A DNA stretch of 64,000 bases from Parafrankia irregularis (GTDB taxonomy: Bacteria; Actinomycetota; Actinomycetes; Frankiales; Frankiaceae), in the NCBI RefSeq assembly GCF_001536285.1, contig NZ_FAOZ01000005.1:175813-239812 (forward strand). The letters are read 5' to 3'. The notes under the pieces are model-generated. The model saw only the letters and a program-made list of their open reading frames with translations, was not told the origin of the DNA and made no database searches. Positions 12,553-41,560 of this stretch are shown here, in pieces. The position numbers and the translations under genes were made by a program. Numbering within the stretch: the stretch's first letter is position 1; the number at the start of each line of letters is the position of its first letter.

Positions 12553-12670
12553 AGGTCAAGAGTGCCAGCGTCAAGTCCGGGCTTGCTGGCCGGCAACCCT
12601 CCTCCGCGGCGGGGTGCCCCCGGTTGTGACCAGGCCGCGTCCGGGTGTCGGGCGTGGCAAGTGCGGACCC
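12553..12670 (+). promoter_or_regulatory. SAM-IV-type S-adenosylmethionine riboswitch
   Basis: The leader matches the actinobacterial SAM-IV pattern as I know it. Closing stem P1 is GGTCA (12554-12558) with TGACC (12627-12631). A core AGAGTGCCAGCGTCAAG is followed by a CCAGC/GCTGG helix, then CCGGCAACCCTCC and GGGGTGCCCC. A downstream pseudoknot-type tail ends GGCAAGTGCGGACCC. It ends about 20 nt before the GAAGGAG ribosome site of the next gene, so control of translation initiation by SAM is likely. The family call is from memory of the consensus, not a model search. Confidence 0.85.
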
Positions 12671-30716: not shown

Positions 30717-31433
30717 CTAGGGGCGGGTCACTTCGTCGGGATAGGGGGCGGGATCGGCGTCGGCGTCGGCGTCGGCTTCGGGGCCAGAGCCGGGCCCGGG
30801 ATCGGGATCGGTGCCGTAGATCGTGCGCAGCCAGATCGCCGTCAGCGCCTCGGCGCGCTGATCCGCGCTGAGCGGACCGCCCGTGCTCAGCTGCTCGAGA
30901 CTGCGCTCGTTGAGCTCGAGCAGAACGGTGACGAGCGCCCGGCTGTCCGGCCCGGCGGAGGCGGTGCCGGCGGCCCGCTCCGCGTCGATCATTTCCGCGA
31001 GCGGGCCGATGAACGACTCCCGGTACTCGTCCCACAGCCTGCGGACGGTCTCGCTGCGCTGGCGGGCGACCAGCATTCCCTGGATCAGGTGCCTGTGCTT
31101 CTCACCACTGGTGAGCACCGCCCGGATCGTCCTGCCGATCCGTTCCCTCGGTGGCCCGCCGGTGGTGATGAGGGCGTGGGTGGCGGACAGGACCTCCTGG
31201 TAGACGTCCGAGCCGAGCGCGGCGGCGCAGGCCGCCTTGTCCTCGAAATAGAAGTAGAACGCGGACCGGCTGACCCCCGCCTCGGCGGTGATCGCGGCGA
31301 CGTTGATCTCGTCGAGGTCGCGTTCCTTGAGGAGTTCGTCCAGCGCCCGCATCATCGCGGCCCGGCGCTGGTCACCGCGCTGGGGCGCGCGCCGGTCGAG
31401 CGGATCGCCGACGCCGACCTGTTCACCGCTCAA
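30717..31433 (-). CDS. TetR-family regulator coupled to the FMO gene
   Basis: TTG 31433 overlaps the FMO stop codon (TTGA), giving 238 residues. The HTH is clear: MMRALDELLKERDLDEINVA, AITAEAGVSRSAFYFYFED, KAACAAALG. A helical ligand domain follows and the tail is Asp/Ala/Pro-rich. The internal MM at about residue 27 is an alternative start. Co-translation with FMO, and a palindrome between FMO and the divergent SDR genes, suggest it represses both units until a substrate is present. Confidence 0.85.
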   Translation of the reverse strand: MSGEQVGVGDPLDRRAPQRGDQRRAAMMRALDELLKERDLDEINVAAITAEAGVSRSAFYFYFEDKAACAAALGSDVYQEVLSATHALITTGGPPRERIGRTIRAVLTSGEKHRHLIQGMLVARQRSETVRRLWDEYRESFIGPLAEMIDAERAAGTASAGPDSRALVTVLLELNERSLEQLSTGGPLSADQRAEALTAIWLRTIYGTDPDPGPGSGPEADADADADPAPYPDEVTRP

Positions 31434-32785
31434 CTCAGGGCCGTCGCCGCGGTCAGCGGGACCGGGCCCTCGGCGAGTGCCCGGCGCCGGCCCCGCGGCA
31501 GCTCCCTGGTGCGCATGTCGTGCTCGTAGAGGAAGTAGTCCACCTGCTGAGTGTGCCGTGGACGGTCGACCATCCGGCCGATGTACTTCTGCTCGTCCGC
31601 CGTGATCACCTGGTCCATCTCGGTGTCGGACGGCGGGCGGTACTGGCCGGCCGCGTAGGCGGCCACCAGGCGCGACTGGCACTCGACGAACGGGAAGAGG
31701 GTCGGCGTCGACTGGGCGAAACCGACGAACGCGAGGTCGGGCAGCCCCGGCAGGAGGATCCGCTTGTACAGGCGGATCCGGTTGTCGGGCGCGCTGACGA
31801 AGTCCTCGTCGAAGAACGGGAACGTGATGTTGTAGCCGGTGGCGTAGATGATGATGTCGAACTCGCCGGACGTCCCGTCCTCGAAATGGACGGTTGATCC
31901 GTCCAGCCGGCTGACGTTCGGCTTCGGGGTGACGTCCCCGCTGGAGAGACGGACGGGGAGCTCCGCCGACTGCGTCGGATGGGCGTCGAAAAGGCGGTGT
32001 TTCGGGGCCGGCAGCCCCCACCGCTCGGGCCGCCCCGCCGACTGGATGTTGAAGAAGTGGAGCACGTTTCGCTGCCAGTTCAGCGGCACGTACGGAAGGG
32101 TGCGGTAGAGCTTGTCCCCCGGCTGGCCACCGACGAGCTTCGGCACGATCCAGGCGCCGGACCGGGTCGAGATTGTCACCTGGTTGCGCAGCGTTCGGGA
32201 CGACAGCTCGACGGTGATGTCGGCGGCGCTGTTGCCGATGCCCACCACCAGGATGCGTGAGTCCTTGAACCGCAGCGGGTTCTCCGGGTCGATGTAGTGG
32301 TGGGAGTGCAGGGTCTGGCCAGTGAACGTGCCGGGGAAGTCGGCGTAACGCGGGTCCCAGTGGTGGCCGTTGGCGACGACGAGGAAGTCGAACGTACGGG
32401 TGCTCCCGTCGGCGGTGGCCAGCCGCCAGCCGCCGCCGTCGAGATGCTCCGCGTGCGTCACACCGTTCTCGAACTCGATTCGCTCGCGTAGCCCGAACGC
32501 GTCGGCGTACCCGTCCAGATAGTCCTTGATCTGGGTGTGGTGCGGGAAGTCCGGATAGTCGTCCGGCATCGGGTAGTCCCGGAACGAGAGCCGGTGCCGC
32601 GAGGTGTCGATATGCAACGAGCGGTAGGCACTGCTGTGCCCGTTCGGGTTCCCGAAAGCCCAGTTGCCACCGAGGCGGTCGGACGACTCGAAACAGGTGT
32701 ACGGCACTCCGTAGTCGCCGAGCATCTTGCCGGCGGTCAGGCCGCTGATGCCCGCGCCGATAACCGCCGTGCGAGGCCCGTTCAT
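31430..32785 (-). CDS. Flavin-containing monooxygenase (class B, FMO/BVMO type)
   Basis: ATG 32785 follows GGAGG 6 nt upstream. The 451-residue enzyme has the FAD Rossmann motif GAGISG (about 10-15), the FMO fingerprint FPGTFTGQTLHSHHY (FxGxxxHxxxY, about 155-169), the NADPH motif GIGNSA (about 187) and ATGY near the end (IIIYATGYNITFPF). These enzymes use NADPH and O2 to oxygenate nitrogen, sulfur or carbonyl substrates. The divergent SDRs and co-encoded TetR suggest a small catabolic or detoxification pathway in which an alcohol is oxidised to a ketone and then oxygenated. Confidence 0.9.
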   Translation of the reverse strand: MNGPRTAVIGAGISGLTAGKMLGDYGVPYTCFESSDRLGGNWAFGNPNGHSSAYRSLHIDTSRHRLSFRDYPMPDDYPDFPHHTQIKDYLDGYADAFGLRERIEFENGVTHAEHLDGGGWRLATADGSTRTFDFLVVANGHHWDPRYADFPGTFTGQTLHSHHYIDPENPLRFKDSRILVVGIGNSAADITVELSSRTLRNQVTISTRSGAWIVPKLVGGQPGDKLYRTLPYVPLNWQRNVLHFFNIQSAGRPERWGLPAPKHRLFDAHPTQSAELPVRLSSGDVTPKPNVSRLDGSTVHFEDGTSGEFDIIIYATGYNITFPFFDEDFVSAPDNRIRLYKRILLPGLPDLAFVGFAQSTPTLFPFVECQSRLVAAYAAGQYRPPSDTEMDQVITADEQKYIGRMVDRPRHTQQVDYFLYEHDMRTRELPRGRRRALAEGPVPLTAATALS

Positions 32786-32838
32786 GGATTCCTCCAGGGG
32801 ACTGGACAGAGGTGCCGGGCACAGACTAGGAACTGACC

Positions 32839-32850
32839 TGACACATGTCA
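32839..32850. promoter_or_regulatory. TGACA-N2-TGTCA operator in the divergent FMO/SDR promoter
   Basis: A 5-bp-arm palindrome is centred between FMO (32785, minus) and the first SDR (32874, plus). A related half-site, CTGACACGCG, occurs 10 bp further on. It is a likely TetR operator controlling both directions. Confidence 0.6.
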
Positions 32851-32873
32851 ACAAAAGCTGACACGCGTGAGGG

Positions 32874-33788
32874 GTGACGGTGGAGCCGACCGTGGAGACA
32901 GCGGTGGAGACCGGGGCGCAGCAGGATCCGCAGGCCGGGACTCCGGCAGGCACGCAGGCAGGCACGCGCGCTGGCACGCAGGCAGAAGCAGGCGGTGACG
33001 GAGGCGGGCGCGAAGCCGGTCGGGTCGCGGTCGTCCTGGGCGGTGCCTCCGGCATCGGTCGCGCCACCGCCGAGGTCTTAGCCGCACACGGCTACCAGGT
33101 CGTGGTGGCCGACCGTGACGGCACGCTGGCGGCGGAGGTCGCCGGCGGACTGGGCAGGCCACATGAGAGCGCCACCGCCGACGTGACCGACGAAGCATCG
33201 GTCGCGGGCCTGTTCGACGGGGTCCACGACCGGCTCGGCCGGCTGGACGCCGTCGTCAACAGCGCCGGCATCGGCAGCCTCGGCCTGATCGCCGACCAGT
33301 CGCTGGAGGAGTTCCGCGCCGTCGTCGACGTCAGCCTCACCGGCGGCTTCCTCGTCGCCAAGCACGCCGGGCGCCACCTCGGCCGCGGCGGGGTGCTGGT
33401 GTCACTGTCGTCGCTCAACGCCCGCCAGCCCGGCGTGGGCCTTGCCGCCTACTGCTCGGCCAAGGCGGGGCTGTCGATGCTCACCCAGGTCGCCGCCCTG
33501 GAGTTCGCCGAACGAGGCATCCGGGTCAACGCGATCGCGCCCGGCCTGGTCACCACCCCGCTGACCGCCCCCGCCGCCGCAATCCCCGGCATCACCGAGG
33601 ACTACCTGGCCAACACCCCGCTGGGGCGGGCCGGCACACCGGAGGAGATCGCGCAGGCCGCCCTCTACCTGTGCTCGGACGCCGCAGCCTGGATCACCGG
33701 GGAGATCCTGGACATCAACGGCGGCGCGCACATGCTCCGCTACCCGAACATGCTCACCCACCTCGCCCGCGCGTTCGGGGACAGCTGA
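32874..33788 (+). CDS. Short-chain dehydrogenase/reductase
   Basis: The 304-residue SDR starts at GTG 32874. The first 45 residues are a low-complexity Gln/Ala/Gly/Thr repeat (AGTQAGTRAGTQ) unlike the enzyme, so translation may start later. The core has cofactor motif GGASGIG, VNSAG, the SLSSLNA Ser region, YCSAK (YxxxK) and NAIAPGLVTTPL. The C-terminus DINGGAHMLRYPN is typical of classical NAD(P)-dependent SDRs. It is paired with the next SDR (one base between stop and start). Confidence 0.88.
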   Translation: MTVEPTVETAVETGAQQDPQAGTPAGTQAGTRAGTQAEAGGDGGGREAGRVAVVLGGASGIGRATAEVLAAHGYQVVVADRDGTLAAEVAGGLGRPHESATADVTDEASVAGLFDGVHDRLGRLDAVVNSAGIGSLGLIADQSLEEFRAVVDVSLTGGFLVAKHAGRHLGRGGVLVSLSSLNARQPGVGLAAYCSAKAGLSMLTQVAALEFAERGIRVNAIAPGLVTTPLTAPAAAIPGITEDYLANTPLGRAGTPEEIAQAALYLCSDAAAWITGEILDINGGAHMLRYPNMLTHLARAFGDS

Positions 33789-33789
33789 G

Positions 33790-34653
33790 ATGGCCGCGGA
33801 CGGAGGGAACCCCGCCGGGAGCCGTGCGGGGCGGCTTGCCGGCACAACGGCACTGGTCACCGGCGGCGGGTCGGGAATCGGTGCCGCCCTGTGCCGCGCC
33901 CTGGCCGGCGCCGGCGCGACCGTGATCTGCACCGACCTGGACGAGGCCGCCGCGGCCCGCACCGCGGGCGACCTGCCCGGCGCCCGCTCCGCCCGGCTCG
34001 ACGTCACCGACGCGGCGGCGGTCGAGCGGACGGTCGCCGACGTCGTGGCCCGAGACGGACGGCTCGACCTGCTGGTCAACAACGCCGGCATCGTCTTCGG
34101 CGGCGAGACGACGGAGCTGACCCCCGCCCAGTGGAACCAGATCATCGACGTGAACATCCGCGGGGTGGTGCACGGTGTCACCGCGGCGTACCCAAGGATG
34201 ATCGCCGCCGGCGGCGGGCACATCGTCAACGTGGCCTCGCTGGCCGGCCTGGTCGCCTCCGGTCTGCTGACCAGCTACGTGATGACCAAGCATGCCGTCG
34301 TCGGGCTCTCCCTCGCGCTGCGGGCCGAGGCGGCCGCGCACGGCGTGGGCGTGACGGTCGTCTGCCCGTCCAGCGTCGACACGCCGATCCTCGACAAGGG
34401 CGCGATCGGGAGCTTCGACAGCCGGGATCTCTTCCTGAAGGACCAGGGCATCCGGAAGCCCTACGACGTCGACCAGCTGGCGGCGGACGTGCTGGCCGCC
34501 GTCGCCGCCGACCGGGCCCTGCTCATCGCGCCCCGGTCAGCCCGGATGGCCTGGCGCTTCCACCGGCTCGCACCCGGACTGCTGCGCCGCTCGGCGGTGC
34601 GTTGGGTCGCCAACCAGCGCAGCCGGGCCGCCGCCCACGCGGCCGGCCGTTGA
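33790..34653 (+). CDS. Short-chain dehydrogenase/reductase
   Basis: The 287-residue SDR has cofactor motif GGGSGIG, LDVTDAAAVE, LVNNAGIVFGG, the VASLAG Ser strand, YVMTK (YxxxK) and VCPSSVDTPI. The C-terminal segment LLIAPRSARMAWRFHRLAPG is the type seen in SDRs annotated as acetoin or ketoacyl reductases in catabolic clusters. It follows the first SDR directly (TGAGATG) and is closed by a strong terminator at 34665-34721. It belongs to the FMO/TetR locus. Confidence 0.88.
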   Translation: MAADGGNPAGSRAGRLAGTTALVTGGGSGIGAALCRALAGAGATVICTDLDEAAAARTAGDLPGARSARLDVTDAAAVERTVADVVARDGRLDLLVNNAGIVFGGETTELTPAQWNQIIDVNIRGVVHGVTAAYPRMIAAGGGHIVNVASLAGLVASGLLTSYVMTKHAVVGLSLALRAEAAAHGVGVTVVCPSSVDTPILDKGAIGSFDSRDLFLKDQGIRKPYDVDQLAADVLAAVAADRALLIAPRSARMAWRFHRLAPGLLRRSAVRWVANQRSRAAAHAAGR

Positions 34654-34664
34654 CGGAGCCCGCA

Positions 34665-34721
34665 GCGCCACCGGGGCTGCGGGGCTGGCGGGCAGCGCAG
34701 CCCCGCCAGCCCCGGTGGCGC
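34665..34721 (+). terminator. Strong hairpin terminator of the SDR operon
   Basis: The left arm GCGCCACCGGGGCTG-CGGGGCT pairs with AGCCCCG-CCAGCCCCGGTGGCGC, a stem of about 21 bp with one bulged base. It starts 12 bp after the second SDR stop. No U-tract is present, as is common in high-GC genomes. Confidence 0.8.
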
Positions 34722-34733
34722 GATGATGGACCC

Positions 34734-35033
34734 ATGCGCACGCAGAGTGGTTCCGCTTTGTCAGCACGCAAGGGCTCACGGCTGTCGATCGGCTCGGAGG
34801 ACTCCGTCCTGTGCCTGTGGTCGAAGGGCTCCGTGCTCTCGATCGGCTCGATCGGCTCGGTTCTGTCCATCGGCTCGATCGGCTCGGCCGTGTCCGTCCT
34901 GAGCGTCGGTTCCTGGGCGAGCTTCGGCTCGGTGATGAGCGCCGCGTCAGGCTGGTCGGTGATGTCCTGGCGGGCCCGGTGGTCAACCCTGACGGGCGGC
35001 CCCGCGGAACCGACGTCGGGCAGCCACTCCTGA
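34734..35033 (+). CDS. Small protein with serine at every third residue
   Basis: ATG 34734 gives 99 residues. From residue 15 to 78 every third position is Ser (15, 18, 21 ... 78) except residue 27, which is Cys. The intervening pairs are mostly hydrophobic-Gly or two hydrophobics (SIG, SVL, SVG, SWA, SFG, SVM). No signal peptide is present; the N-terminus (MRTQSGSALSARKGS) is basic. Such strict three-residue periodicity suggests a stacked helix or beta-solenoid. I have an impression of similar small proteins in other actinomycetes but know no function. The ribosome site is weak (GATGGA). It lies between the SDR terminator and a convergent methyltransferase gene. Confidence 0.6.
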   Translation: MRTQSGSALSARKGSRLSIGSEDSVLCLWSKGSVLSIGSIGSVLSIGSIGSAVSVLSVGSWASFGSVMSAASGWSVMSWRARWSTLTGGPAEPTSGSHS

Positions 35034-37514: not shown

Positions 37515-39854
37515 TCAGCACAGCGGAACCCTGGTATCGACCCAGACGGTGTTCGACGGGCCGGAGGTCTGGCCGTTGTTGTAGAAGCCGTCCGCGTCGG
37601 AGTAGTACGCGTTGTTCCACGGCGACGATGCGATCCTGTACCACCAGTCGTTCCCGTTCGGGGTGACGTAGCCACGCACCCGGCAGGACACCTGCACCGT
37701 CTGGTGGTACCCGATGTCCGGGCCGCGCGTACCACCAGCGGTCTGGTAGTTCGTCCACGTGTGCCCGCCGTGGTTGGACGTCTCCGAGTAGGTGGACGGC
37801 GCCGGCGGCACGGTCGTCGGCGCCACCGTCGTCGGCGCCACCGTCGTCGGCGCCACCGTCGTCGGCGACAGGGACGGGCTCGGCGACGGCGGCGTCGTCC
37901 GCACCGGCGGAGCCGTCGACGGGGTCGGGGTCGGAGTCGGAGTCGGAGCAGGCGGCGTCGTCGTCCGCACCGGTGAAGTCGTCGACCGGGTCGACGTCGG
38001 CGACGTCGGCGACGTCGGCGACGCGCCGGGTGTTGTCGGGCGGGCCGACGACGGCTGCTGCTGCGTTCCGGTCGGCAGCTGCGCGGGCGGCGACGACGGG
38101 AGGGCGGCCGTCCGCGGCCGCACGGTGATGGAGACCTGCTCCGTGGCAGTACCACCGCCGACGAGCTGGGCGCTGACGCTGACGGTGTAGGTCCCGGCCG
38201 CGGCCCAGGAATGGGTGACGTCGAGACCCATCCCGTTCGCGCCGTCGCCGTAGTACCAGCTGGCACTGGCCACCGGTGCCGTGTCGCCCAGTGGGACGAC
38301 CCGCAGGGTCACCGTGCTGTCAGTCGTGACCTGCTGGGCGGTCACGCGGATCTCAACACCGGACCGTGCGGGCGGCCGCGCCGAGGTCGGCGGCGCAGCG
38401 GTCGGCGGCGCAGCGGTCGGCGAGTTGCTGACCTGCGGCGCTGTGCGCGGCTGCGGCTCGGAAGCCTGCGTCGAAGGGGACGAGGACGGCACCACCGGCA
38501 CGACCGGCCTCGACTCGGCGGTACGCGTCGGCTGGGGCGTCCGCGCCGGGGCGGAGGTCTGCGCAGGCTGTGACGGCTGTGCCGGAGGGGATGTCTGCGC
38601 CGGGGGCGGCGTCTGCGCCGGGCCGGACGGCGTGTTCGCGGCGACGCCGGCTGCGCCCCGGTCGAACTCGTGTGCCTCGGAAGCGGTGCCGTCCGCGCGG
38701 ATGACACCGGCGATGTCACGATTACGGTCGTTGTAGAACATCAACGTGCCCTGCGCGACCAGCTCGAGCGCGGCACTCGGCCCGTGCACCACTTCCGAGC
38801 GGGCCAGAACCCGCGGGCGGGCCGGGTCCGTCGTGTCCACGACGATGATCGCACCGGTGGTCAGATCGGGGATGAACACGCGCCCCGCCGCATCCTTCGG
38901 CTGCCCGAGCGTGTGACCTTCGGGTGCGATCGACAGTGCCGCCGTGGCGCAACCGCCCGCCGCGACGTCACTGACCACCAGCACCCCCCGCTGGCTGTTG
39001 ACCAGGTAGAGCGCCGTCCCCCGGCTGGAGCCGATGACCTCGACCGTCCGCAGATCGGACAGCGGCTCGACGCATGTGTGCTCGTCGCCGAGGCCGTCCG
39101 CCCCGATCGTTCGCACCGTGCCGGCGGCGAAGTCGACGAGGTAGGGCCTGCCTGCCACCGTCACCAGCTGCACCAGCGCCGGGTTGCTGACCACGTTCCG
39201 CCAGACGCGGGTGCCGGCGGCGTCGATTCTGACGAGCCCGCCGGTGCCGTCGACAGCCCAGAGCCGTGCCTGGCCGTCGGCACCCGCCGAGGCGTCGCTG
39301 ATCGTCGCCCCTTCAGCCATGCCGGCGGGGGCCGCCAGCGAGTAGGTCCGCACGGTCCGCAGCGTCTTCGGGTCGGCGATGCTGACCACGCCGGTCAGCC
39401 GGTCCCGGACGAAGACCGCACTGGGCGTGGCCCGGATCTCCAGCCGCGGCTGCCCGTCGGCGAGCTGCCCGACATCCGCGTTTCTGGTTTCAGCGTCGAC
39501 GAACGACACCGGAGCGCCCAGGTCGAACGTCGCACCATCGATGCGCTGGACGGCACCGTCCTTCAGGACGGCGAACGCGTCCGGCCCCGACTGGGCGACC
39601 GCCAACGGCTCTCCCAGGAGAGACACTCGACGGATCACCGCTGCCGACGCCCCGTCCACCAGCACTCCGGCCCAGGCGGGCGTGGATGGCAGCCAGGCGG
39701 AGCTGTCGTCCAGGTTCGCGGCCCGGGCCGGGGGTGTCCCCGGCGACCGCCAGGCGACGATGGTCACCGCGCACGCGACCAGCAGGAAACCCAGCGACGC
39801 GCGGAGCAGCCACAGCCGCCGCGGCCCCGTCTCCCTGCCTGCCATTTTACCCAC
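37515..39854 (-). CDS. Large exported protein with propeller-like, PKD and C-terminal Trp/Tyr-rich modules
   Basis: This 779-residue protein has a signal anchor (about 14-35). A repeat region of beta-propeller character (about 50-400) contains segments such as VFVRDRLTGVVSIADP, RPYLVDFAAGTVRTIG and VFIPDLTTGAIIVVDTTDP. A Pro/Gln/Thr linker leads to a PKD-like domain (about 505-585; SWYYGDGANGMGLDVTHSWA, AGTYTVSVSA). A long Pro/Thr linker with PTPTP and TTVAP tandem units follows, then a C-terminal module (about 700-779) with VSCRVRGYV, NDWWYRIASSPWNNAYYSDA and a final Cys. That module is familiar at the end of actinobacterial cell-surface and kinase proteins. It is probably extracellular; ligand unknown. 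Confidence 0.75.
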   Translation of the reverse strand: MGKMAGRETGPRRLWLLRASLGFLLVACAVTIVAWRSPGTPPARAANLDDSSAWLPSTPAWAGVLVDGASAAVIRRVSLLGEPLAVAQSGPDAFAVLKDGAVQRIDGATFDLGAPVSFVDAETRNADVGQLADGQPRLEIRATPSAVFVRDRLTGVVSIADPKTLRTVRTYSLAAPAGMAEGATISDASAGADGQARLWAVDGTGGLVRIDAAGTRVWRNVVSNPALVQLVTVAGRPYLVDFAAGTVRTIGADGLGDEHTCVEPLSDLRTVEVIGSSRGTALYLVNSQRGVLVVSDVAAGGCATAALSIAPEGHTLGQPKDAAGRVFIPDLTTGAIIVVDTTDPARPRVLARSEVVHGPSAALELVAQGTLMFYNDRNRDIAGVIRADGTASEAHEFDRGAAGVAANTPSGPAQTPPPAQTSPPAQPSQPAQTSAPARTPQPTRTAESRPVVPVVPSSSPSTQASEPQPRTAPQVSNSPTAAPPTAAPPTSARPPARSGVEIRVTAQQVTTDSTVTLRVVPLGDTAPVASASWYYGDGANGMGLDVTHSWAAAGTYTVSVSAQLVGGGTATEQVSITVRPRTAALPSSPPAQLPTGTQQQPSSARPTTPGASPTSPTSPTSTRSTTSPVRTTTPPAPTPTPTPTPSTAPPVRTTPPSPSPSLSPTTVAPTTVAPTTVAPTTVPPAPSTYSETSNHGGHTWTNYQTAGGTRGPDIGYHQTVQVSCRVRGYVTPNGNDWWYRIASSPWNNAYYSDADGFYNNGQTSGPSNTVWVDTRVPLC

Positions 39855-41471: not shown

Positions 41472-41487
41472 GTGACCTGCGGTGATG

Positions 41488-41560
41488 CTCCTGCGATAGG
41501 ACTCGAACCTATAACCTGCCGGTTAACAGCCGGCTGCTCTGCCAATTGAGCTACGCAGGA
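41488..41560 (-). tRNA. tRNA-Asn (anticodon GTT)
   Basis: On the minus strand the 73-nt cloverleaf has acceptor arms TCCTGCG / CGCAGGA with discriminator G. The D-arm region is AGCTCAATTGGCAGAGCA, the anticodon stem-loop CCGGCTGTTAACCGG with anticodon GTT, and the T-arm GGTTCGAGTCC. No CCA is encoded. No second copy of its 3' end was noticed nearby, so there is no sign of an integrated element at this site. Confidence 0.97.

What the first reader, a model, noticed from the sequence alone, without database searches (positions are those of the whole stretch)
34734..35033. 99-residue protein with serine at every third position over 22 triplets
Residues 15-78 have Ser at 21 of 22 successive third positions, with one Cys. 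The intervening residues are mostly Ile/Val/Leu/Trp/Phe plus Gly or another hydrophobic. This regularity goes beyond low complexity: the codons vary and the periodicity persists where the DNA no longer repeats (residues 51-78). It predicts a three-faced solenoid or bundled extended helix with a serine stripe, which might bind ice, a surface, metal or itself. I know no function for such proteins.
Basis: partly seen in the sequence, partly recalled or inferred. Interest (0 to 1): 0.7.

Follow-up and report, generated by a model that had tools for sequence, protein, structure and literature searches.

The report
Actinobacterial serine-triplet nonapeptide-repeat small protein
A small bacterial protein that carries serine at almost every third position belongs to an unnamed family found across many actinobacteria and kept by selection, but its shape and job are still unknown.

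Summary
ORF 34734-35033 (+), 99 aa, has Ser at 21 of 22 third positions (Cys27 the exception); 20,000 shuffles never exceeded 15. It belongs to a family without Pfam or NCBIfam entry, found in 83 of 393 sampled genomes of the class (37 of 137 genera, E <= 1e-8). Coding is secure: all 23 serine columns of a 55-row alignment mix TCN and AGY codons, dN is below dS in 17 of 17 chosen pairs, and 83 of 133 loci have a -10-like NANNNT 12-13 bases before the start codon, suggesting leaderless mRNAs. The unit is nine residues: 61 of 63 arrays with both end motifs keep a multiple of nine. Exceptions at serine sites are mostly Ala, Cys or Gly; Thr is absent at window residues 15-78 (0 of 55), so the serine looks packed rather than displayed. 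In 33 of 37 Streptomyces-type arrays a hydrophobic segment follows. One copy in the same genus looks broken. Best guess, inferred: a self-assembling, serine-cored rod at the membrane.

The parts
34734..35033 (+). 99-aa protein gene (residues 1-14 lead, 15-78 serine-triplet array, 79-99 tail)
   Evidence: 98% identical relative in Parafrankia sp. EUN1f; one match in the own genome, E 2.6e-54
34776..34967 (+). residues 15-78, 22 triplets, nine-residue superperiod clearest in the first half
34770..34895 (+). DNA tandem repeats, 27- and 9-base units, under the first part of the array
34722..34727 (+). -10-like hexamer GATGAT (NANNNT, not full TANNNT), six bases before the ATG; suggests an mRNA that starts at the start codon
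   Evidence: sequence; family spike at -12/-13 in 83 of 133 loci; meaning of TANNNT about 12 bp before the start: PMC3160421 (passages)
34665..34721 (+). hairpin of 25 pairs with small bulges between the upstream SDR gene and this gene; probably separates the transcripts (inferred; no run of T)
   Evidence: part of a -75.9 kcal/mol fold of 34640-34760, z -3.9

Best explanation
SHOWN: a real, selected protein of an unnamed, mainly actinobacterial family; the unit is nine residues made of three Ser-x-x triplets; the middle is nearly free of charge and proline; many of the genes carry a leaderless-type promoter signal; gene order around it is kept within Nocardiaceae but not between more distant genera in the loci compared. 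SHOWN BY SEQUENCE: many members add a hydrophobic segment after the array. INFERRED: the serine side chains are packed tightly at every third position and form the core of a thin rod or self-assembling bundle whose outside carries the I/V/L/W/G residues, so that the protein lies on the cytoplasmic membrane or assembles with itself there; members with an extra hydrophobic segment are tethered by it. The likeliest role is structural, not enzymatic. The role itself is a guess.
For: Selection on the protein: 23 of 23 serine-rich columns of A1 (55 rows) hold both TCN and AGY codons; dN < dS in 17 of 17 pairs that I chose, e.g. 0.03/0.48, 0.01/0.19, 0.20/0.56 for window/L002; differences at codon positions 1, 2, 3 = 129, 65, 259 over 11 pairs. 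Small residues: over window residues 15-78, 55 of 1193 in-phase residues are not Ser: Ala 22, Cys 17, Gly 6, Lys 4, Leu 3, Arg 3, Thr 0, while Thr occurs 28 times at the other two positions; in 110 arrays 74 of 2597: Ala 23, Cys 19, Gly 16, others 16, Thr 0, although Thr makes 12% and Pro 21% of one-step non-synonymous neighbours (transitions counted double). Nine-residue unit: 61 of 63 motif distances are multiples of 9; triplet class repeats at lag 3 (0.65 against 0.32-0.36 at lags 1, 2, 4, 5; C-terminal halves 0.57 against 0.35-0.46). Middle: no D/E/K/R at window residues 33-72 in 50 of 55, no proline in any. Tethers: a charge-free hydrophobic window after the array in 33 of 37 Streptomyces-type arrays and 7 of 73 others, one of the 7 (L002) being part of an interrupted array; in the L149 model helix 91-119 has pLDDT 59 in its first ten residues and 79-83 after, the best of the chain; one locus, L081, has a hydrophobic segment before its array instead, with TACGCT six bases before its GTG. 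Promoter signal.
Against: No model supports any fold of the array. The array is no ordinary membrane helix: best 19-residue sums on a recalled additive scale run from +0.5 to +8.4, median 3.8, none below 0 of 109; the tails go below 0 in only 3 of 109 (tails under 19 residues not scored). Most members outside the Streptomyces type, the window's included, lack the extra segment. Positive charge flanks that segment on both sides, more after it, so topology is open, and an N-terminal segment in L081 may put the array on the other side. Nine-residue indels may come from 27-base slippage. Thr does occur once at the edge column of residue 81 (L003). A same-genus copy (L107) has 16 Ser of 20 and a stop inside the end motif, and L110 stops soon after ten triplets, so the gene may be dispensable in some strains.
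Confidence: 0.35

Rival explanations
1. A three-sided beta-solenoid that displays the serines outward and binds ice, a surface or metal.
For: Three triplets per nine-residue unit; beta-branched I/V frequent at the first position.
Against: AF2 gives no strand in two attempts; Thr, the usual ice-binding residue (recalled), absent at serine sites of residues 15-78; middle without charged ligands in 50 of 55; no signal peptide seen (own reading).
Confidence: 0.1
2. A membrane-inserted helical protein whose serines pack helix against helix or line a pore.
For: Ala, Cys and Gly as main exceptions; uncharged 40-residue middle; AF2 weakly proposes helix 51-87.
Against: Period 3.0 does not match 3.6; first half rich in G/S/I/V; insertion sums unfavourable; low confidence.
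Confidence: 0.2
3. An intracellular amyloid-like or phase-separating protein without a fixed monomer fold.
For: Uncharged, proline-free middle of S, G, I, V, L; unresolved by AF2.
Against: Strict register, absence of Thr and multiples of nine ask for exact packing.
Confidence: 0.2
4. A multi-site serine substrate (kinase target, or peptide precursor with dehydrated serines).
For: Density of serine; Cys at some sites.
Against: Thr would be expected among the exceptions but is absent; no neighbour cluster recurs in more than 7 genus labels. Neighbours outside the window were not scanned for kinase or modifying-enzyme families.
Confidence: 0.05
5. Not a gene: an open frame over a simple DNA repeat.
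For: 27-base DNA repeat; many chance open frames in this GC-rich DNA; two relatives with early stops.
Against: Mixed serine codons in every serine column, dN<dS, conserved ends, and start codons placed behind a promoter-like signal.
Confidence: 0.02

Closest known systems
Insect antifreeze proteins of the Tenebrio/Microdera type (TCTxSxxCxxAx)
   Same: Small residues (Cys, Ser, Cys, Ala) at every third position of the repeat string (string seen in one passage of PMC4204002); recalled to point into the core of a thin beta-helix.
   Different: Unit 9, not 12; Ser instead of Cys; no Thr row; no match of A1 to a solved antifreeze protein by sequence.
RTX nonapeptide beta-roll (GGxGxDxUx, recalled)
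   Same: Nine-residue unit.
   Different: No Gly-Gly or Asp ladder in A1; no Pfam match.
Left-handed beta-helix hexapeptide repeats (recalled pattern [LIV]-[GAED]-x-x-[STAV]-x)
   Same: Single hexamers such as IGSFAS fit the pattern.
   Different: Unit is nine; no hexapeptide family among Pfam hits of 55 members; not built by AF2.
Collagen and polyglycine-II bundles (Gly every third, recalled)
   Same: Small residue nearly obligatory at every third position.
   Different: Ser instead of Gly; no proline in the middle.

Membership tests
Any Pfam or NCBIfam family | HMM match | tested here: not met
   window protein: 0 families at E <= 0.01 in both; of 55 members, five families each hit by one member, best E 0.0083 (Pfam); other members not scanned against NCBIfam
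RTX beta-roll | GGxGxDxUx nonapeptides (recalled) | tested here: not met
   alignment A1, Pfam scan
Hexapeptide left-handed beta-helix | six-residue period and left-handed beta-helix | tested here: not met
   period nine; no such Pfam hit; no strands in AF2 models, which are of low confidence
Ice-binding proteins | regular Thr-rich face (recalled) | tested here: not met
   Thr 0 of 55 exceptions and 0 of 74
Ice-binding proteins | ice activity | not testable with these tools
   needs an assay
Beta-solenoid proteins in general | stacked strands in a solved or confident model | tested here: inconclusive
   pLDDT 49.8 and 53.5, no strands
The serine-triplet family described here | serine-triplet array in multiples of nine between a charged N-end triplet and an S-x-[ML]-S-W-R-like end | tested here: met
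   distance 54 = 6 x 9 in the window's own gene (row L071); motifs in A1
Leaderless genes | TANNNT about 12 bp before the start codon | tested here: inconclusive
   family: NANNNT at -12/-13 in 83 of 133, TANNNT at -12 in 23 against 0.07 per position; the window has GATGAT, so the first T is not met; no 5' end measured

The most novel reading that the evidence does not exclude
The array is an inside-out micro-solenoid with one turn (or half a turn) per nine residues: serine hydroxyls stacked in a polar, hydrogen-bonded core and aliphatic residues outside, a fold not seen before that lives on or in the actinobacterial membrane and polymerises by stacking.
Probability: 0.15. Interest if true: 0.85.

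Novelty: new variant of a known kind. Interest (0 to 1): 0.6.

Why it matters
A family present in about a fifth of sampled genomes of the class (83 of 393), with named members in Streptomyces, Nocardia and Frankia and in 46 of 85 genomes of a family with small genomes, has no Pfam or NCBIfam entry and no predicted fold. Its rule (Ser, sometimes Ala, Cys or Gly, not Thr, at every third place, in blocks of nine) is strict enough to state a packing problem that can be tested directly and that AlphaFold2 did not solve here.

Tried and rejected
Gene neighbourhood. The first clustering had its output cut; it was repeated without ORFs that overlap the array. Across genera the widest clusters look like ABC ATPases (7 genus labels, 13 of 70 loci; 5 labels, 10 loci; 4 labels, 4 loci) and SDR enzymes (5 labels, 5 loci), names by my own reading; a uracil-DNA-glycosylase-like ORF lies near the gene in 3 labels (3 loci). 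Genus labels are mine, from the record titles. Within Nocardia and Rhodococcus many neighbours are shared by 17-18 loci, so the gene is inherited in place there. In 55 Streptomyces-type loci the largest shared neighbour set had 7 loci. The window's neighbours recur in L001 and L103 only, of 10 Frankiaceae loci searched, of which L102-L107 hold only about 3 kb. None of this names a function.

Mobile elements: no match in plasmids or phages (BLAST's low-complexity filter was on, so this is weak) or, with one Streptomyces-type query, in viral contigs. PHROGs: phrog_36982 in two of 55 members (best E 9.5e-4) and phrog_29268 in one, taken as compositional. PDB by profile: three kinesin light chain constructs, E 0.0034-0.01, matching a Thr-Gly-Ser linker.

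Literature: searches for the idea and for peptide strings gave nothing relevant; this covers the open-licence library only.

Rows dropped: A1 holds the window and 54 of the 70 loci; left out were near-duplicate Nocardia and Modestobacter rows (L049, L053, L054, L056, L059-L063, L066, L069) and truncated or doubtful ones (L039, L040, L046, L067, L070). L070 and the weak hits may be unrelated low-complexity frames; some such loci (e.g. L108, L109, L115) appear in the upstream listing and may be among the 133. In one search, 47 of 110 arrays lacked one of the two motifs and were not counted, and some matches (e.g. L027, L029, L033, L138) are internal look-alikes.

Full report
WHAT IS THERE. The frame 34734-35033 (+) codes for 99 residues. 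Serine occupies 21 of 22 successive third positions over residues 15-78, with Cys at 27. Shuffling the same residues 20,000 times gave at most 15 of 22. The DNA repeats end at 34895, while the periodicity runs on to residue 78 (base 34967).

IT IS A FAMILY. A scan of genome contigs (one genome for each of 84,980 species) returned 70 loci, 68 of them titled as Actinomycetota, among them Parafrankia, Frankia, Streptomyces, Nocardia, Rhodococcus, Nocardioides, Asanoa and Modestobacter; the exceptions are an Anaerolinea MAG (L055) and a Clostridia MAG (L070, doubtful). Profile searches of sampled whole genomes found it in 40 of 396 of the phylum (E <= 1e-3, weak hits included), 53 of 199 of genus g3 (E <= 1e-10), 83 of 393 of the class, 37 of 137 genera (E <= 1e-8, profile A2), and 46 of 85 of a family of small genomes (E <= 1e-6). 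Genus g3 is unnamed; I take it as Streptomyces because the named Streptomyces loci L007 and L021 share neighbour genes with its loci, and call these members Streptomyces-type. In the window's own family 18 of 35 match at E <= 1e-3 but only 7 strongly (E < 1e-20: G000, G397, G401, G412-G415). The own genome has one match. The window protein matches no Pfam or NCBIfam family; in Pfam, five families were each hit by one of 55 members, best E 0.0083.

IT IS CODING AND SELECTED. In A1 (55 rows) all 23 columns with at least 60% Ser contain both TCN and AGY codons, two sets not joined by a single synonymous change. In 17 pairs that I chose, dN is below dS throughout, though for window/L001 this rests on two changes of each kind and for L002/L003 it is weak (0.22/0.31). 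Over 11 pairs, differences fall 129, 65, 259 on codon positions 1, 2, 3. Against it: L107 (same genus) has 16 Ser of 20 and a stop inside the end motif, and L110 (same family) leaves the pattern after ten triplets and stops soon after; these look broken.

LEADERLESS PROMOTER SIGNAL. In 133 loci with distinct array starts (window included) I took the ATG nearest the array, or GTG where no ATG was found, without looking upstream. NANNNT begins at -12 in 64 and at -13 in 19, against 0 to 8 at each position from -20 to -60; TANNNT is at -12 in 23 against a mean of 0.07. So 50 of 133 lack it; some of the genes have a Shine-Dalgarno-like stretch instead, e.g. L043 and L057. In 1359 mechanical ORFs of 150 aa or more in the same loci the NANNNT counts at -12 and -13 are 86 and 66 against a mean of 31.8. 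A TANNNT about 12 bp before the start is read as the mark of leaderless genes, about a fifth of genes in Actinobacteria (PMC3160421, passages). The window has GATGAT at -12 (34722-34727), right behind a hairpin (34665-34721) that separates it from the SDR gene upstream. The loci are related to each other, so these are not independent cases, and no 5' end was measured.

THE UNIT IS NINE RESIDUES. In 63 of 110 arrays both an N-end charged triplet and a C-end motif were found; their distance is a multiple of nine in 61 (54 in 25, 63 in 25), where one third would be expected if only triplets mattered. The class of the residue before Ser recurs at a lag of three triplets (0.65; 0.32-0.36 at lags 1, 2, 4, 5), and in C-terminal halves (0.57; 0.35-0.46). 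Slippage of a 27-base DNA unit could produce such indels, so this speaks for a structural unit only together with its persistence in the C-terminal halves.

WHAT THE SERINES TOLERATE. Over window residues 15-78, 55 of 1193 in-phase residues of A1 are not Ser: Ala 22, Cys 17, Gly 6, Lys 4, Leu 3, Arg 3. All Lys are at residue 78 of four similar rows and all Arg in the outlier L055. Thr is absent there and in 74 exceptions of 2597 in 110 arrays, though present at the other positions; it occurs once at the edge column of residue 81 (L003). I read this as tight packing with a wish for the hydroxyl, not a display surface. Window residues 33-72 are free of D, E, K and R in 50 of 55 members and of proline in all.

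TETHERS. After the array, 33 of 37 Streptomyces-type arrays and 7 of 73 others have a charge-free hydrophobic stretch (one of the 7 is part of an interrupted array). L081 has such a stretch before the array, with TACGCT six bases before its GTG. The window protein has neither.

STRUCTURE. AF2 with 55 rows: pLDDT 49.8, pTM 0.20, one low-confidence helix 51-87. AF2 on L149 with 53 rows: pLDDT 53.5, pTM 0.25; array blocks 37-59; helix 91-119 with 59 in its first ten residues and 79-83 after. Since AF2 tends to over-predict solenoids for perfect repeats (PMC11795689, abstract), its failure to do so is mild evidence against a simple solenoid, no more.

CONTEXT. Many neighbours are shared by 17-18 Nocardia and Rhodococcus loci, but between more distant genera mainly large enzyme families recur, and the window's neighbours recur only in L001 and L103 among ten Frankiaceae loci.

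WHERE THIS LEAVES THE MECHANISM. Shown: a real, strict, widespread family. Inferred: packed serine core, membrane association, self-assembly. Not shown: any fold, location or function.

Noticed in passing
window 12554-12669 (+): SAM-IV riboswitch, 103.4 bits.
   Followed up: no
window 41487-41560 (-): tRNA-Asn (gtt).
   Followed up: no
window 34665-34721: Hairpin of 25 pairs between the SDR gene and the serine-triplet gene; L001 shows a shorter palindrome at the same place.
   Followed up: partly
window 31430-34653: Two SDR genes in tandem (+) beside a flavin monooxygenase gene on the other strand; the listed 5' ends of the monooxygenase and first SDR frames overlap.
   Followed up: no
L107: Copy in the window's genus with several lost serines and a stop inside the end motif; looks like a decaying gene.
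   Followed up: partly
L083, L086, L089, L090: Distant relatives with IGSAGS-type nonapeptides and a hydrophobic C-terminal segment but without the SWR end motif; homology or convergence undecided.
   Followed up: partly
L033, L052, L064 and relatives: Lineage-specific tails with cysteine: many Nocardia end in HCQT, Modestobacter L064/L069 in a cysteine-rich stretch.
   Followed up: no
L006: Contig titled Bifidobacterium breve MAG whose member resembles those of uncultured actinobacteria L010/L011; the label may be wrong.
   Followed up: no
L004, L005, L050: A uracil-DNA-glycosylase-like ORF within about 4 kb of the gene in three genus labels; may be chance.
   Followed up: no
window 37515-39854 (-): Long secreted-looking protein with Thr/Pro-rich repeats over 15-, 18- and 36-base DNA repeats.
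   Followed up: no
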